Shown here: positions 47,244 through 52,647 of the stretch, piece after piece
Layout of the letters: every line of letters begins with the position of its first letter
Numbering within the stretch: position 1 is the first letter of the stretch
Source: an uncultured Marivita sp.
GTDB lineage: Bacteria; Pseudomonadota; Alphaproteobacteria; Rhodobacterales; Rhodobacteraceae
Direction: 5' to 3'
Assembly (NCBI RefSeq): GCF_947488135.1
Contig: NZ_CANKYW010000001.1
Span: 62,001-126,000, forward strand
DNA length: 64,000 bases
Position numbers and translations under genes: made by a program
The notes under the pieces: model-generated
What the model was told of the DNA's origin: nothing
What the model saw: the letters and a program-made list of their open reading frames with translations, nothing else
Database searches by the model: none

Positions 47244-47838
47244 TCAAGTCTGGCTTGGGGGCAAACGGTAGCTGAGCGCCTCGGCGACGTGGTCGCGGGT
47301 GATGGCGTCCGACGCTTCGAGATCGGCGATGCTGCGGGCGACGCGCAGGACGCGGTGGTAGCCGCGCGCGGAGAGGCCGAAGCGGTCCGCGGCATTCGTC
47401 AGGAGCGCGCGTGCCGAAGTGTCGAGCGTTGTGACCGTGTCAAGCAAACTGCCTTCGAGATCGGCGTTCTGCCGCATGTCGGGATGGTCGCGGAACCGGT
47501 CGCTTTGAACGGCGCGCGCGTCGGCCACACGGGCCGCAATCTCGGCGCTACTGGCGCCCGATCCGGGCAGATCGAGATCGCGGAAGGCCACCGGCGGGAC
47601 ATCGACCCGCAGGTCGAACCTGTCCATCAGGGGGCCGGAGATGCGCCCCATGTAATCCTCGCCGCAATTCGGCGCGCGTGAACAGGCACGGGCGGGATCG
47701 CTGAGATAGCCGCATTTGCAAGGGTTTGCGGCGGCGATCAGCATGAAGCGACAAGGATACTTGATATGGGCGTTGGCGCGCGCGACCATGACCTCCCCAG
47801 TTTCGATCGGTTGGCGCAGGGTTTCGAGCACGGCGCGG
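47244..47838 (-). pseudogene. comM: comM (yifB), 3' part separated by the IS1595 element
   Basis: This is the C-terminal part (about 195 codons) of a Mg-chelatase-like AAA+ protein: LETLRQPIETGEVMVARANA, the cysteines of CKCGYLSD, LMDRFDLRVDVPPV and the C-terminal ISADLEAS-type region. It is cut from its N-terminal half at 51731-52647 by the inserted element. A GTG at 47831 could start a fragment, but it lacks the Walker motifs, so no function is expected. ComM is a branch-migration helicase of natural transformation. Confidence 0.9.
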
Positions 47839-47846
47839 GGGAATTC
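47839..47846. repeat. Left 8-bp target-site duplication
   Basis: GGGAATTC precedes the left inverted repeat and recurs at 51731-51738 after the right one. Because the flanking sequence is palindromic, a 10-bp reading (GGGGAATTCC) is also possible; 8 bp fits the IS1595 family. Confidence 0.8.
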
Positions 47847-47870
47847 CGGTATTATGGAGCAAACTCACCA
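47847..47870 (+). repeat. Left terminal inverted repeat
   Basis: It begins CGGTATTATGGAG and ends AAACTCACCA. It matches the right end in 23 of 24 positions; the single difference is C here against T there at position 14. Confidence 0.9.
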
Positions 47871-47881
47871 TATATGATGAT
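47870..47881 (+). promoter_or_regulatory. ATAT-N2-GATGAT site at the left end
   Basis: ATATATGATGAT directly abuts the inner edge of the left inverted repeat. It is one of four matches in the element and may be a binding site for the element's regulator or transposase. Confidence 0.45.
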
Positions 47882-47892
47882 GTTTACGCCGT

Positions 47893-48624
47893 TTATGATA
47901 TTACTGCGTTTTCTGGTGGTTCAATGTTATCCCATCGCTCCGCAATCGTGGCGCAAGCGGCTTCCATGTTTTGAAATCGTCTAGTGGCGTCCGAAGGTGC
48001 GGGAATGAATTTTCCTGTTGCACAGTCTAACGTGAGGCAAAGCTTTTCTTCTGGTGCCGTTTCGTCTTGAACATCAATCATTTTGCGGCAGCCGTACAGA
48101 ACAGATGATTGATAAGCGCCAACCTCTTCATCAAGAGGTTTGTTTTTTGCGTATCGAATTGTTCCAAGGCCAGTTCTTAGCCTGTTTGTCCTGGTCACAC
48201 GCTGAGTGCCAAACCGAATATCGGCATTTACCTCAACGCCATTTATGTTGACCCTGAAGTCAGTCGGAGCATCTACAATTTCAGCGTTGTTGGGAAAGGT
48301 TTCCATGTCAAACACGCTTGCGTATGCCATCAGGAAGTCGCCGTTAATATCGAGAGTGTCGCGCTCAAATTCTGTGTCCGCCATCATGTCAAGAAGACGC
48401 TGGCCCTCCTGCTCTAGTGCGCTTGTGCTTAGAGAGCCGCCACGTAGCGCATTTGTGATAAATGCTTTCGCACGGTCATGCTGGATAGCTCTGGCGATTT
48501 TGCGATACTTGCAGTCGCGAATGATGGTGCGTCGCGCTCGTTCAGATGCGACCATATAGTCACTTAGGTAACGACTGTTGACCTTTGGTATATTGACCAA
48601 GCGATGGGTTGGGGATTCACTCAT
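47893..48624 (-). CDS. Passenger protein of unknown function (243 aa)
   Basis: The 243-residue protein begins MSESPTHRLVNIPKVNSRYL. The first third is helical and basic (ERARRTIIRDCKYRKIARAI), the rest mixed, with YGCRKMIDVQ and KLCLTLDCATGKF. AGAGG lies 8 bases before the ATG at 48624; an earlier ATG at 48648 would overlap the divergent gene start. I recognise no domain. Only 22 bp separate it from the divergent 75-residue gene. Confidence 0.65.
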   Translation of the reverse strand: MSESPTHRLVNIPKVNSRYLSDYMVASERARRTIIRDCKYRKIARAIQHDRAKAFITNALRGGSLSTSALEQEGQRLLDMMADTEFERDTLDINGDFLMAYASVFDMETFPNNAEIVDAPTDFRVNINGVEVNADIRFGTQRVTRTNRLRTGLGTIRYAKNKPLDEEVGAYQSSVLYGCRKMIDVQDETAPEEKLCLTLDCATGKFIPAPSDATRRFQNMEAACATIAERWDNIEPPENAVIS

Positions 48625-48646
48625 TCCAAAAACCTCTGGGGAAATC

Positions 48647-48874
48647 ATGGCAGAACTCTATCTTACCGGGAAAGCGCCAGATGGAAAGCGTCTGATGATT
48701 GCGCCCATCACATCAAAGAAGCTTGCGCGATGCCCAGAACCGCCAACGGACACAAGCGGTTACTTTCTCATGGAAGAGAAAGAGGGGAGTAAAGATGGTG
48801 TGATAACTATTCTCGCTCGTGTGTCAGACGCAGAGGCCGCATTTCGCTTAGGTCGTTTGTTCTGCATGTCCTGA
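48647..48874 (+). CDS. Small passenger protein of unknown function (75 aa)
   Basis: The 75-residue protein reads MAELYLTGKAPDGKRLMIAP to the end LGRLFCMS. GGGGA before the ATG at 48647 supports the start. Its composition is that of a small soluble mixed alpha/beta protein with no known motif. It is divergent from the 243-residue gene by 22 bp and convergent with the DUF6471-like gene, whose stop lies 4 bp away. Confidence 0.6.
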   Translation: MAELYLTGKAPDGKRLMIAPITSKKLARCPEPPTDTSGYFLMEEKEGSKDGVITILARVSDAEAAFRLGRLFCMS

Positions 48875-48877
48875 CAG

Positions 48878-49117
48878 TCAATCAGAAAGCGATAAGCTCG
48901 TTGCCCCTATCGCATCCATGCACATCAGAAAAAACGCAGTTGTGAAGCTGCCACGGCTTATCTTGTTCGCTATGTTCCGCTCTGTCTCTGGCGTCCCAAG
49001 CATCGTCAGTCGATCAGCAAGCTGACCGTAGGTTACACCACGTCGCTTGAGCTCTGCTTTCAGAATGTTCTTGGCTTTGGTTTCGTAGTCGCTGACGACC
49101 TCAACATCCTTGGGCAT
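48878..49117 (-). CDS. DUF6471-like small helix-turn-helix regulator
   Basis: The 79-residue protein contains KAKNILKAELKRRGVTYGQL, ADRLTMLGTPETERNIANKI and SRGSFTTAFFLMCMDAIGA, the pattern I recall for DUF6471, a Cro/C1-like DNA-binding domain. It is divergent from the transposase; the 105-bp gap between the two genes holds two facing ATAT-N2-GATGAT sites, one just upstream of each start. This suggests autoregulation and control of the transposase. Confidence 0.75.
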   Translation of the reverse strand: MPKDVEVVSDYETKAKNILKAELKRRGVTYGQLADRLTMLGTPETERNIANKISRGSFTTAFFLMCMDAIGATSLSLSD

Positions 49118-49143
49118 GGCTTGGCCTTTCGCTAAAACATCTC

Positions 49144-49214
49144 ATATATGATGATATAACCCTTGCATCCGATGAATACTACACCTATATTCAGTGTAGA
49201 ACATCATCGGATAT
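49144..49214. promoter_or_regulatory. Divergent promoter with two facing ATAT-N2-GATGAT sites
   Basis: ATATATGATGAT (49144-49155, plus) and ATCATCGGATAT (49203-49214, minus orientation) frame the gap between the regulator (start 49117) and the transposase (start 49223). The second copy ends 8 bases before the transposase ATG, so binding could block transcription or translation initiation. Confidence 0.55.
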
Positions 49215-49222
49215 GATATAAA

Positions 49223-50182
49223 ATGGCCCAGCACTTCCTCCTTTCACCCGCCGCAAAGACACTTTCGCTTGTGAAGGTGATGCGCATGTCCGAAGAGGAA
49301 GCGCGCACGGCATTCCGCAAAATCCGCTGGACCGAAACAGAAGGTGAGCCGATCTGCCCCGAGTGCGGATGCGTCGATCATTACGACCTGAAAACCCGCC
49401 AAGTGTACAAGTGCAAGGGCTGCAACAAGCAGTTCAGCATCACATCCGGCACCATTTTTCACGGTCGCAAGCTTCACGTCCGCGACATTCTCGCGGCCAT
49501 CGCAATCTTCATAAATGGTGCAAAGGGCTACAGCGCCCTCCAACTGTCCCGCGATCTGTCGGTTGACTACAAGACGGCGTTTGTCCTTCTGCACAAGGTC
49601 CGCGAAAGCATAGAGACGGCTCGTGATGCTGGCGCTCTTTCCGGCGATGTTGAGGTCGATGGCGCTTACTTTGGTGGCTATGTGAAGCCTGCCAATGAAA
49701 TCAAAGATCGCAAAGACCGCCGCAAGAAGGTCAATCAGTCCGGCAAGCGCCAGAGCGTTATCGTTGCGCGTGAGCGCGGTGGCCGCACACTGACATACGT
49801 TGCCAGCACAGAGGCTGATGGCGTTGCGCACGTTGCCGCCAACGTTGCCAAGGGCAGCACGGTTCACGCAGACGAAGCGTCCCACTGGGACAGGCTGGCG
49901 GCATACTTCCCCATAAAGCGCATCAATCACAAAGAGGCGTATTCGAAGGATGGCGCTTGCACCAACCAAGCAGAAAGCTTCTTTAGCCGCCTACGTCGCG
50001 CTGAAATCGGCACACATCACCACATCGCAGGCAAGTATCTTTCGGCCTACGCCGCAGAAATGGCTTGGCGTGAGGATAACAACCGCGTTGCCAATGGCTT
50101 TCAATTCGCAATGGTTATGGGCGCTGTGAGTGCTGCTGAGAAGTCCGCCAAATGGTGCGGGTATTGGCAACAAAAAGACTGA
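49223..50182 (+). CDS. IS1595-family (ISXO2-like) transposase
   Basis: The 319-residue protein has an N-terminal zinc ribbon (C45, C48, C64, C67 in ICPECG and KCKGC), then the ISXO2-like DDE domain with D146 (VEVDGAYFGG), D217 (VHADEASHWDRL) and a third catalytic region at N248-E251 (TNQAESFFSRLRRAEIG). The length is normal for the family. Matching terminal repeats at both ends of the element suggest it may still be active. Confidence 0.95.
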   Translation: MAQHFLLSPAAKTLSLVKVMRMSEEEARTAFRKIRWTETEGEPICPECGCVDHYDLKTRQVYKCKGCNKQFSITSGTIFHGRKLHVRDILAAIAIFINGAKGYSALQLSRDLSVDYKTAFVLLHKVRESIETARDAGALSGDVEVDGAYFGGYVKPANEIKDRKDRRKKVNQSGKRQSVIVARERGGRTLTYVASTEADGVAHVAANVAKGSTVHADEASHWDRLAAYFPIKRINHKEAYSKDGACTNQAESFFSRLRRAEIGTHHHIAGKYLSAYAAEMAWREDNNRVANGFQFAMVMGAVSAAEKSAKWCGYWQQKD

Positions 50183-50261
50183 GTAAACGAAAGCTTCGGC
50201 CAAAACGGGAACATGTAAACGCAGCATTGACGGGGGTGTCGTTTACAGCCATATTGACGAC

Positions 50262-50804
50262 ATGGATTCGGACCTCATCAAAAAACGCCTCCTTGAGCTT
50301 GATAAGCTAGACGCTATCGCGGACAAGGAAATTGAGCATCAGCAGCGCATAAAGGCTGCAAACGCGGATGAGCGCAAGGAGCTGTTCGTTGCTGCAAAGG
50401 TGTTCGCGCGTTTGACAGGCAGTGTTGAAACGCAAGAGTTCAGTCAATTTGAGAAAAGGGCAGTCCAGAGTGCTGACCGGCATGTAGCTGACCTGACGCT
50501 GCCCGAAATGATTTCAAAAGTTCTCGAAGCAATGGGCGGCAAAGGCATGGAGCCAAAGGAAATCTCGGATAAAATTTCCGAGTCGTGGATGCCTGATGTT
50601 GTTGTTAACAACGTTGCTTCTTCGTGTTGGCGCATGTGGAAACAAGGAAGGCTTACAAAGGACGAAGGCACGAAAATTTATCGGTTGCCTCAAACGAATG
50701 AACCCCCAGACGAAAAACTTGGCAGTGAAGCGTCTGAGGGTTCTCTCTTTAATCCAGATCCCGAAGCACAAGGCGTTAAAGCCGCGCCGGGAGGTGGGCC
50801 ATGA
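50262..50804 (+). CDS. Passenger protein, coiled coil plus C-terminal winged-helix-like domain
   Basis: In the 180-residue protein, residues 1-45 are a charged helical, coiled-coil-prone segment (DLIKKRLLELDKLDAIADKE). Residues from about 78 (LPEMISKVLEAMGGKGMEPK) through KQGRLTKDEGTKIYRLP look like a winged helix. A polar tail ends GVKAAPGGGP. It lies 79 bp after the transposase. The same architecture occurs in the gene at the right end. The function is unknown. Confidence 0.6.
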   Translation: MDSDLIKKRLLELDKLDAIADKEIEHQQRIKAANADERKELFVAAKVFARLTGSVETQEFSQFEKRAVQSADRHVADLTLPEMISKVLEAMGGKGMEPKEISDKISESWMPDVVVNNVASSCWRMWKQGRLTKDEGTKIYRLPQTNEPPDEKLGSEASEGSLFNPDPEAQGVKAAPGGGP

Positions 50805-50826
50805 TAATATAGTTCTTACCATGGTT

Positions 50827-50876
50827 GCCCTCGGTGAAAGCCGAGGGCGCTGTAGCATCCAGAGGTGCAACTCTGG
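50827..50876 (+). ncRNA. Candidate structured RNA: two tandem hairpins
   Basis: GCCCTCGG-tgaaag-CCGAGGGC (50827-50848) is followed by CCAGAG-gtgcaa-CTCTGG (50859-50876) in a 173-bp non-coding stretch of the element. Neither is followed by a T-run. They could be a small RNA, a leader structure for the 64-residue gene, or a weak terminator for the gene before. Confidence 0.35.
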
Positions 50877-50977
50877 ACAATCGAAATGACCTACGAGCAG
50901 TCAATTTCTTACCCTAACATTAGGGTAATTTTCGGATTCCGTCAATAACTCGTGGGTCTCAGCGCAAAGGAAAGCGC

Positions 50978-51172
50978 ATGCAAGACCGACCGTTAACACC
51001 GGACATGGTCCCGGTGATCAAGCTGGCTCGTGCCCAGAACATTCCATACTCTTGGATTTCTGGATACTACAAGGGCCTGAACTTTGGGCGTATCGCTGAC
51101 GTAATGAAGGGGCGCAAGTATCCCAAAATCCCGCCAGCGAAAAAGCTGCCGCCAGACTTCCCGGTAGCGTAA
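50978..51172 (+). CDS. Tiny passenger protein, possible helix-turn-helix (64 aa)
   Basis: The 64-residue basic protein contains IPYSWISGYYKGLNFGRIAD followed by VMKGRKYP, which resembles small phage or mobile-element helix-turn-helix proteins where a GRxxxV-GKRxP motif follows the recognition helix. A strong bidirectional terminator follows its stop. The function is unknown; DNA binding is inferred. Confidence 0.55.
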   Translation: MQDRPLTPDMVPVIKLARAQNIPYSWISGYYKGLNFGRIADVMKGRKYPKIPPAKKLPPDFPVA

Positions 51173-51179
51173 ACAACCG

Positions 51180-51207
51180 AAAGGGCGGCTCACATGCCGC
51201 CCTTTTT
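51180..51207. terminator. Bidirectional terminator inside the element
   Basis: The stem GGGCGGC / GCCGCCC (51183-51189, 51196-51202) has a 6-base loop, an A-run before and five T after. It ends the tiny gene on the left and the convergent gene on the right, whose stop codon is in the loop. Confidence 0.88.
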
Positions 51208-51666
51208 CAATGCCCACAGCTTATACGGCCCATTTCCGTCATGATCCTTAGTCCAGCCGTGATCGACCACTAGCCCCTGATCCCGACATCCCTTTATACA
51301 CGCCCCGATCCGCTTGCGCAGCGTGGCATAGGTCGCATCATCGCAGACCAGCCCGCGCTCTGCGGCCCAACGTTCGGTTATCTGGCGCGATGTGAGCGGC
51401 TCGTCGGCTTCTCGTAGACAATCCAGCACAAACCGCTTTACTGAACCTTTCCGCGCCCGGTGTTTCGTCACGTACTGCTTTATGGCGTATGTGTCCGCGT
51501 TGGGATCGAACAAGCGGATTGCGGCGTCCAGGTGGTCTATATCCACCGTCAGCTTTTTGATTTCCGCTTTGTAACGGTCGCGCAGCGCGGATAACTCGGC
51601 GTGCTTTGCGACCAGACCCGATACAGTGTTCGGGCGCTCATAATCTACTGTGTCCTTCATGACCAC
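51190..51666 (-). CDS. Passenger protein, coiled coil plus winged-helix-like domain
   Basis: In the 158-residue protein, residues 16-55 form a likely coiled coil (LVAKHAELSALRDRYKAEIK and following heptads). The C-terminal half (VKRFVLDCLREADEPLTSRQ through ITERWAAERG and LRKRIGACIKGCRDQGLV) looks like a winged helix. Starts at 51666 (MVMKD) or 51660 (MKD) are possible. An ATAT-N2-GATGAT site lies 9 bases upstream. The architecture parallels that of the 180-residue passenger gene. Confidence 0.62.
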   Translation of the reverse strand: MVMKDTVDYERPNTVSGLVAKHAELSALRDRYKAEIKKLTVDIDHLDAAIRLFDPNADTYAIKQYVTKHRARKGSVKRFVLDCLREADEPLTSRQITERWAAERGLVCDDATYATLRKRIGACIKGCRDQGLVVDHGWTKDHDGNGPYKLWALKKGGM

Positions 51667-51674
51667 AGCATAAC

Positions 51675-51686
51675 ATCATCAAATAT
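51675..51686 (-). promoter_or_regulatory. ATAT-N2-GATGAT site at the right end
   Basis: ATCATCAAATAT lies 9 bases upstream of the coiled-coil gene start and 20 bases inside the right inverted repeat, in mirror orientation to the left-end copy. Confidence 0.45.
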
Positions 51687-51706
51687 GGCGTACTAGTCAT
51701 TAAATT

Positions 51707-51730
51707 TGGTGAGTTTACTCCATAATACCG
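51707..51730 (-). repeat. Right terminal inverted repeat
   Basis: It reads TGGTGAGTTTACTCC then ATAATACCG on the plus strand, the complement of the left end apart from one base. It also creates the stop codon (51715-51717) that ends the truncated comM N-terminal frame. Confidence 0.9.
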
Positions 51731-51738
51731 GGGAATTC
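51731..51738. repeat. Right 8-bp target-site duplication
   Basis: This is the second copy of GGGAATTC, part of the comM coding sequence (codons for EFP on the minus strand). Confidence 0.8.
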
Positions 51739-52647
51739 CGGAAACTCATCCATGAAGAGCACGCCGTTATGGGCGAGGCTGATCTCGCCGGGTTTGGCGG
51801 TGCGGCCGCCGCCGACGATTGCGGCCATCGATGCGGTGTGGTGCGGCTCGCGGAAGGGCCGTTCGCGGGAGATGCCGCCCGCTTCGATCAGGCCGGAAAG
51901 CGAATGGACCATGGAGGTTTCCAGTGCCTCGGCGGGGGTGAGCGGGGGAAGGATGCCGGGCAGGCGGGAGGCCAGCATGGATTTGCCGGAGCCGGGCGTG
52001 CCGACCATCAATACGTGATGCCGTCCGGCGGCGGCGATTTCGAGCGCGCGTTTCGCGCGTTCCTGCCCTTTGACGTCGCGCATGTCGCGGGCATCGGGGG
52101 CGTGTTTGACCTCGCCGGGATCGCAGGGCGTCAAGGGGGTTCGTCCGGTGACGTGCTGGATCACGTCCATCAGCCCGGCGGCCCCAATCACCTGGCAGCC
52201 GCCGACCCAGGCGGCCTCGGCCCCGGAGGCGGCGGGGCAGATCAGCGTGCGGTTCTCTTCCGCGGCGGCCATGGCGGCGGGCAGTGCGCCGATCACGGGG
52301 ACCAGCGCGCCATCGAGGGAAAGTTCGCCGAGGGCGACGGTTTCGGCGACGGTGTCTTTTGGCAGGATCTCAAGCTCGGCCAAAAGGGCCAACGCGATGG
52401 GGAGGTCGAAATGCGAGCCCTCCTTGGGCAGGTCGGCGGGCGACAGGTTTACCGTGATCCGTTTCGACGGCAGCGCGATATGCAGGGTGGAAAGCGCGCC
52501 GCGTACCCGGTCGCGTGATTCGGACACGGCCTTATCAGGGAGGCCCACGACAGCGAAGGCGGGCATTCCGGGGGTGACGGCGCATTGCACCTCGACCATG
52601 CGGGCGTCAACGCCTTCGAAGGCGACGGTGTAGGCGTGCGCGACCAT
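51731..52647 (-). pseudogene. comM: comM (yifB), 5' part disrupted by the IS1595 element
   Basis: This is the N-terminal part (about 305 codons) of ComM: the LON-like N-terminal fold ([20 protein letters not shown]), then the AAA+ Walker A GTPGSGKS and Walker B region LFMDEFPEF, where the element cuts. The frame runs into the inverted repeat and stops at 51715 after GIME. It lacks sensor residues and the C-terminal half, so the helicase should be inactive. Confidence 0.92.

What the first reader, a model, noticed from the sequence alone, without database searches (positions are those of the whole stretch)
47847..51730. IS1595-family element carrying six passenger genes
Typical IS1595 elements are about 1 kb with one gene. 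This one is 3.9 kb with near-perfect 24-bp ends and six extra genes: a DUF6471-like regulator, two proteins that look like coiled-coil plus winged-helix, a tiny helix-turn-helix candidate and two unknowns. None is a recognisable resistance or metabolic gene. The set looks built around DNA binding and may serve the element (silencing, target choice, plasmid-like control) or exclude other DNA.
Basis: partly seen in the sequence, partly recalled or inferred. Interest (0 to 1): 0.72.

Follow-up and report, generated by a model that had tools for sequence, protein, structure and literature searches.

The report
Transposon with a swappable targeting protein
A 3.9-kb bacterial jumping element sits at one exact spot in the DNA-uptake gene comM, and comparison with over a hundred relatives suggests that a small DNA-binding protein near its right end is a swappable guide that decides where such elements land.

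Summary
The element is real: an IS1595-family transposon, 47847-51730, with an 8-bp target duplication GGGAATTC, inserted at comM codon 305 beside the Walker B motif. I compared it with 122 relatives (68 loci; 54 more). The transposase, a DUF6471 gene and a small coiled-coil/winged-helix protein (window 51190-51666) recur; other cargo varies. Insertions repeat at identical positions in different hosts and, at the four sites checked, in both orientations: comM codon 305 (29 elements), comM codon 241 (11), glycosyltransferase codons 247/354/388 (16), a terminator-like repeat (10) and others. On the winged-helix tree, 10 site labels over 77 elements need 9 changes, the minimum; the transposase tree needs 27, shuffles about 45. 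Host kinship does not explain it. Best explanation: the winged-helix protein is a modular target selector, working like TnsD or TnsF but unrelated to them. It is not absolute: 8 of 53 elements with a close relative at a named site sit elsewhere, and 46 of 123 elements have no site label. No experiment was done.

The parts
47839..47846 (.). Left copy of the 8-bp target duplication GGGAATTC (comM codons 304-306)
47847..47870 (+). Left terminal inverted repeat CGGTATTATGGAGCAAACTCACCA
   Evidence: same repeat type in 68 other loci
47893..48648 (-). 251-aa variable cargo, no family match; no BLAST relative in the other 68 elements
48647..48874 (+). 75-aa ORF, uncertain gene
48878..49117 (-). DUF6471 protein (79 aa), upstream of and divergent from the transposase; presumed regulator (inference)
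   Evidence: E 9.5e-30; 64 of 69 elements
49223..50182 (+). IS1595-family transposase, 319 aa, zinc ribbon + DDE domain
50262..50804 (+). 180-aa variable cargo; BLAST relatives in 3 other elements
50978..51172 (+). 64-aa helix-turn-helix candidate (by eye; stretch like NQGRIADVMKGR in relatives), family in 17 of 69 elements
51190..51666 (-). Coiled-coil + winged-helix protein (158 aa from the first start codon), proposed target selector
   Evidence: 69 of 69 elements; tree tests; model pLDDT 82
51707..51730 (-). Right terminal inverted repeat
51731..51738 (.). Right copy of the 8-bp target duplication GGGAATTC
51739..52647 (-). 5' part of the interrupted comM (YifB-type AAA ATPase), up to just past MDEFP
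47244..47838 (-). 3' part of the interrupted comM

Best explanation
An IS1595-family transposon whose landing site is chosen by a dedicated, exchangeable protein. Shown: the transposase family, the terminal repeats, the 8-bp duplications, the recurring genes, the exact repeated sites, and the site-by-site match with the tree of the winged-helix protein and not with the transposase or DUF6471 trees. Inferred: the winged-helix domain binds DNA at the target (here the Walker B region of comM), the coiled coil dimerises it and/or contacts the transposase, and the zinc-ribbon/DDE transposase inserts the element there in either orientation. DUF6471 probably regulates expression. The remaining cargo is variable freight, in several relatives defence-like. 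In the window the product is a broken comM, so recombination of incoming DNA should be impaired (inference from published ComM work).
For: 69 elements share ends and gene plan; target duplication 8/8 in 64 of 68 readable. Insertions fall on the same positions: comM codon 305 in 29 (L076 by extrapolation), codon 241 in 11, glycosyltransferase codon 388 in 8, 247 in 6, each in both orientations, with at least 9, 4, 2 and 2 switches of orientation on the winged-helix tree, so these are repeated insertions. First set, 49 labelled rows, 7 labels: 6 changes on the winged-helix tree (the minimum), 16 on the transposase tree; DUF6471 16 with 46 rows. Both sets, 77 labelled rows, 10 labels: 9 (the minimum) against 27; 200 shuffles mean about 45, never below 39. 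Leave-one-out nearest neighbour among labelled rows gives the right site in 77 of 77 by winged-helix protein, 46 of 77 by transposase. Of 16 new elements at a site already in the first set, the nearest old winged-helix protein predicted the site in 14, had no label in 2 and was wrong in 0; the transposase 4 right, 4 without label, 8 wrong. Transposase data reject the comM-241 group as one clade (delta lnL 432, p 3e-62) and the codon-388 group (351, p 1.7e-6). Labels shuffled within host groups never go below 25 changes on the winged-helix tree, observed 9 (200 shuffles). The model is a long helix plus a winged helix; Foldseek's best hits are MarR, PadR and Fur-type DNA-binding regulators, none with E below 0.001.
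Against: Not absolute: of 53 elements whose nearest winged-helix relative is at least 60% identical and at a named site, 45 share the site and 8 sit elsewhere. In the second set 15 elements whose nearest old protein carries a label sit elsewhere, 13 of them at under 50% identity. Two with comM-241-type proteins (L191, L229) sit elsewhere although comM is open in those genomes. 46 of 123 elements have no site label and do not enter the tree test. The transposase tree also carries some signal (27 changes against about 45 shuffled). The trees are quick ones: 22 of 66 inner branches are poorly supported in each first-set tree. Both halves of the protein follow the site equally (9 changes each), so the winged helix is not singled out. 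No binding or transposition data. The sample is biased to near relatives of this transposase.
Confidence: 0.8

Rival explanations
1. The transposase itself recognises the target and the winged-helix protein only travels along or regulates expression.
For: Most IS elements need no helper (recalled). Insertion in both orientations fits a symmetric transposase complex. The transposase tree carries some site signal (27 changes against about 45 shuffled).
Against: Where the nearest transposase relative is at least 60% identical and at a named site, 38 elements share the site, 20 are at another named site and 29 elsewhere; for the winged-helix protein 45, 0 and 8. Transposase tree 27 changes against 9.
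Confidence: 0.07
2. The winged-helix gene is tied to its site by recombination with the flanking gene, since it lies near the end of the element.
For: It lies near the right end in nearly every element.
Against: At each of four sites the element lies in both orientations, so the right end abuts the 5' part of the gene in some and the 3' part in others, inside one group.
Confidence: 0.04
3. Insertion is loose, and only insertions that break comM or polysaccharide genes survive selection.
For: comM is hit at two sites and one kind of glycosyltransferase gene at four; loss of ComM may lower the host's ability to remove mobile elements (argued in PMC11472951, passages read).
Against: Selection for gene loss would scatter insertions along the gene; the 40 comM insertions are at two codons.
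Confidence: 0.04
4. The winged-helix protein is a repressor adapted to each insertion context after landing.
For: Its fold resembles MarR/PadR regulators.
Against: One group of proteins stays with one site across several host orders and both orientations; DUF6471, also a candidate regulator, shows no such link.
Confidence: 0.05

Closest known systems
IS1595 insertion-sequence family (Siguier, Gagnevin and Chandler 2009; title seen in a reference list, content recalled, not read)
   Same: Transposase domains, inverted repeats, 8-bp duplications; passenger genes as such are known in the family (recalled)
   Different: Recurring accessory genes and a protein that predicts the landing site; not described in the listings of my searches, which cover open-licence papers only
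Tn6022 / AbaR-type Tn7-like transposons with TnsF (Faure et al. 2023, PMC10293859; passages and section 14 read)
   Same: Separate target selector; target is the Walker B region of comM
   Different: Tn6022 has TnsABC, TniQ, TnsE and a 498-aa tyrosine-recombinase-related TnsF; here one IS1595 transposase and a 158-aa winged-helix protein
Tsy elements (same paper)
   Same: Non-Tn7 element inserting into comM with a TnsF homologue
   Different: Tyrosine recombinases and no detectable inverted repeats; different chemistry
Tn7 TnsD/attTn7 (recalled)
   Same: Sequence-specific protein reads a conserved coding sequence and directs insertion
   Different: Insertion beside glmS without breaking it and in one orientation

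Membership tests
IS1595 family | ISXO2-like DDE transposase domain (PF12762 / NF033547) | tested here: met
   E 7.5e-42 and 6.4e-46, above the curated cut-offs
IS1595 family | N-terminal IS1595 zinc ribbon (PF12760) | tested here: met
   E 5e-13
IS1595 family | Terminal inverted repeats and an 8-bp target duplication (the value 8 is recalled) | tested here: met
   ends CGG..., 8 bp outside
Tn7-like transposons | TnsA/TnsB/TnsC/TniQ genes | tested here: not met
   no such Pfam, NCBIfam or PADLOC match among the element's ORF products scanned
TnsF target selectors | about 500 aa, tyrosine-recombinase-related | tested here: not met
   158 aa, helix plus winged helix; no tyrosine recombinase among the 25 of 50 Pfam families shown for 91 members
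Target selectors as a functional kind | Binds the target DNA and is required for insertion there | not testable with these tools
   only the tree-site match supports it

The most novel reading that the evidence does not exclude
A family of IS1595 transposons in Alphaproteobacteria carries interchangeable selectors that have converged on the host's DNA-reception genes. Of 123 elements, 40 break comM, 2 radC, 1 comEC, and 26 break genes that look like polysaccharide synthesis or export (17 GT2, 5 NfrB-like, 3 in the ORF beside the NfrB-like gene, 1 ABC-2 permease; the polysaccharide role is inferred from family). A published table of R. capsulatus genes for receiving gene transfer agents lists capsule genes, comF, comM, radC, dprA and recA (PMC10218006 Table 1, passage). 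By this reading the element disarms transformation and gene-transfer-agent reception, the routes by which it could be recombined out. Limits: these glycosyltransferases were not shown to make a receptor, the grouping was made after seeing the hits, no enrichment was computed, and a gene-transfer-agent marker (PF13547) was found in the window's genome but in only 4 of 9 genomes with comM insertions.
Probability: 0.3. Interest if true: 0.92.

Novelty: new variant of a known kind. Interest (0 to 1): 0.85.

Why it matters
Dedicated, swappable target selectors are known for Tn7-like transposons. Here a one-transposase IS family appears to have evolved the same division of labour with a small protein (mostly 110-210 aa) of a different fold. 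Ten named sites occur with related transposases, so swap tests are direct. After Tn6022 and Tsy it is another, unrelated kind of element inserting beside the comM Walker B motif, which bears on the question raised in PMC11472951 (passages read): why ComM is targeted at all. A compact protein that sends a DDE transposase to a chosen site would also interest genome engineers.

Tried and rejected
Other cargo as selector: rejected; no other cluster but DUF6471 is shared widely enough, and DUF6471 does not follow the site. Host taxonomy as the hidden cause: rejected; host order needs 14 changes on the transposase tree and 17 on the winged-helix tree over 64 rows. Winged helix alone against coiled coil alone: no difference (9 changes each). 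DNA conservation at the site beyond what the protein sequence demands: not seen; wobble positions in the duplication vary (judged by eye). Defence role of the window's own cargo: no match. PDB profile search: coiled-coil and weak winged-helix matches only. AU tests for the codon-247 and mnmE groups did not finish. Gene-transfer-agent family PF13547 was found in 12 of 19 element-bearing genomes, the window's included: 4 of 9 with comM insertions, 8 of 10 with glycosyltransferase insertions; this neither supports nor excludes the novel case. The VIA-align library was not available.

Rows dropped: 12 of 80 loci without a clean end pair (L028, L043, L045, L060, L068, L074, L082, L083, L096, L097, L100, L101). 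In the second set 80 stretches were fetched, 2 gave no candidate end pair, 19 failed the end and duplication thresholds, 5 repeated the first set, 54 stayed. Some matches at contig edges or in fragments were not fetched (for example in G305, G171, G535, G962, G814). Two of the 123 elements lack a winged-helix protein in the tree set (121 rows); two others (L212, L204) had it picked by place, not by HMM. Unlabelled in the tree tests: 46 of 123, among them L065 and L093 (single positions in glycosyltransferase genes), the two radC and the comEC insertions. Of 145 cargo proteins listed, 128 were scanned, and only the first 25 families are shown there.
Full report
The observation. The element at 47847-51730 is bounded by CGGTATTATGGAG(C/T)AAACTCACCA repeats (23 of 24 positions alike) and by GGGAATTC on both sides. 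It interrupts comM, whose two parts lie at 51739-52647 and 47244-47838 on the minus strand. The empty reading frame puts the insertion at ComM residue 305, in the EF of MDEFPEF, three to four residues past the Walker B MDE (YifB/ComM-type family match). The transposase is IS1595 family.

Relatives. A scan of one genome per species with the transposase gave 80 loci kept; 68 show the same kind of end pair around the transposase. With the window that is 69 elements of 2.8-7 kb. The 65 with a named order are from Sphingomonadales, Hyphomicrobiales, Rhodobacterales, Caulobacterales, Hyphomonadales, Parvularculales, Rhodospirillales and Acetobacterales. Placing the end one base further out (CGG) gives an 8-bp duplication: 8/8 in 64, 7/8 in 1, 6/8 in 2, 2/8 in 1, unreadable in 1.

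Recurring and variable genes. Clustering of ORFs finds the transposase and the 158-aa-type protein in 69 of 69, and DUF6471 in 64 of 69 by phmmer. The usual plan is left cargo, DUF6471 leftward, transposase rightward, middle cargo, then the winged-helix gene leftward near the right end; in L048 that gene lies on the other strand. Cargo differs from element to element. Among 128 cargo proteins scanned (of 145 listed) are matches to SocA/Panacea (5), KilA-N (3), P63C (3), NYN (2), Abi_2, DNA methylase and Mrr (1 each) in Pfam, and to BstA (3), HEC-09 (2), AbiD and methylase models in PADLOC.

Targets. The flanks show that many insertions share sites. All 40 comM insertions among the 123 elements of the two sets are at two codons, 305 (29, one of them, L076, by extrapolation) and 241 (11). 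GT2-type glycosyltransferase genes are hit at codons 247 (6), 388 (8), 354 (2) and 573 (1) (codon numbers of one reference frame). In sphingomonads an NfrB-like gene is hit at one site (4 elements; placed by eye) and once nearby (L065), and the ORF beside it, called barrel here as a guess, three times. The 3' end of mnmE is hit twice. A GC-rich, hairpin-like stretch followed by TATTT, intergenic, is hit 10 times in genomes of the window's order. At the four sites checked both orientations occur.

What decides the site. In the first set with coarse labels ('other' counted as one), the site label needed 26 changes on the transposase tree and 15 on the winged-helix tree. With exact sites: 16 against 6, the minimum for 7 labels, and 16 for DUF6471. 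On 121 elements with both proteins, 77 labelled, 10 labels: winged-helix tree 9 changes, the minimum; transposase tree 27; shuffled mean 45. Of the 16 new elements at an already known site, 14 were predicted by the nearest old winged-helix protein, 0 wrongly, 2 without a label; by transposase 4 right, 8 wrong, 4 without. In Sphingomonadales alone, 17 elements at five kinds of site need 4 changes (minimum 4) on the winged-helix tree and 7 on the transposase tree. The AU test rejects a single transposase clade for the codon-241 and codon-388 groups.

Results against. Eight of 53 elements with a near (at least 60%) relative at a named site sit elsewhere, among them L024, 88% like the window's protein. 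In the second set, 15 elements whose nearest old protein carries a label sit elsewhere, 13 of them at under 50% identity. Two with comM-241-type proteins sit elsewhere although comM is open in those genomes. At 30-45% identity the nearest neighbour predicts little: 5 same, 8 elsewhere. Of 18 winged-helix hits in 196 genomes of the order, 5 had no transposase match in the roughly 1.5 kb held on each side, so the protein may sometimes stand alone or far from the transposase.

Structure. The AlphaFold model (mean pLDDT 82, pTM 0.59) has a helix 16-53 and a winged helix 75-153. Foldseek finds MarR, PadR and Fur-type regulators, best E 2.2e-3. Pfam gives no family for the window's protein; 9 of 91 members match HARE-HTH at E up to 0.1, best E 1.5e-5, and 10 match DUF4777, best 4.1e-5.

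Comparison. Tn6022 and Tsy use TnsF to insert in comM; binding needs a 10-bp region in the Walker B motif (PMC10293859, section 14 read). The present elements share neither transposition genes nor selector fold with them, so arrival at nearly the same place looks convergent. Searches of the open-licence paper library for IS1595 with passenger gene, with comM, with target site or insertion specificity, with accessory genes in Alphaproteobacteria, with target selection, and for comM insertions in Alphaproteobacteria, listed no paper whose title or abstract start describes this (up to 25 listed each; listings only, except PMC3281130, where one reference-list mention was read). DUF6471 is in no held paper.

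Why comM and polysaccharide genes. [quoted passage not shown] capsulatus gene transfer agent (PMC10883770), and ComM is named for the Bartonella agent too (PMC6899734); capsule genes, comF, comM, radC, dprA and recA are listed as recipient genes (PMC10218006); comM interruption by mobile elements is common in Acinetobacter baumannii and its reason is debated (PMC11472951). Hits here include comM 40, radC 2 (L092 by Pfam UPF0758_N; L235 by similarity to it), comEC 1 (L250, both sides match Pfam Competence) and 26 in polysaccharide-type genes. This is a pattern seen afterwards, not a test.

Noticed in passing
window genome C1:632503-632721 (L287): A second, degraded element of this family: winged-helix remnant with a transposase fragment (58 aa, 72% like L093's) about 0.8 kb away.
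   Followed up: partly
L064, L090, L092, right flanks: The right target duplication is followed directly by another left-type end (CGG..TAGCAA..), as if a second element had landed beside the first at the same site.
   Followed up: no
L203, L204, L205, L207, L208, L210, L212, L218, L220, L222: Ten elements from genomes of the window's order sit at the same position of an intergenic repeat, CCCCCG(G)GATATTTG or CCTCCGGCGGG-ATATTTG-like, just after a hairpin-like stretch; their winged-helix proteins are short (110-130 aa) and form one group.
   Followed up: partly
L046, L053: Insertions at the last codons of mnmE by elements with distant transposases but sister winged-helix proteins.
   Followed up: partly
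L022, L032: Two elements share an unidentified target ending in ...gtctacaaatctaggggcacct.
   Followed up: no
L269 (Rhizobium gallicum plasmid pRGM101a): A relative of the 251-aa cargo protein is annotated as two adjacent hypothetical genes near Fic and type I restriction genes.
   Followed up: no
window 50978-51172 and 16 other elements: Tiny 54-102 aa proteins with a conserved (N)QGRIADVMKGR-like stretch recur beside the selector gene, mostly in the clade of the window's transposase.
   Followed up: partly
L206, L191, L024: Elements outside the named sites sit in a phage-type DNA methylase gene, a relaxase/helicase-like gene and another transposase-like gene (names by eye).
   Followed up: no
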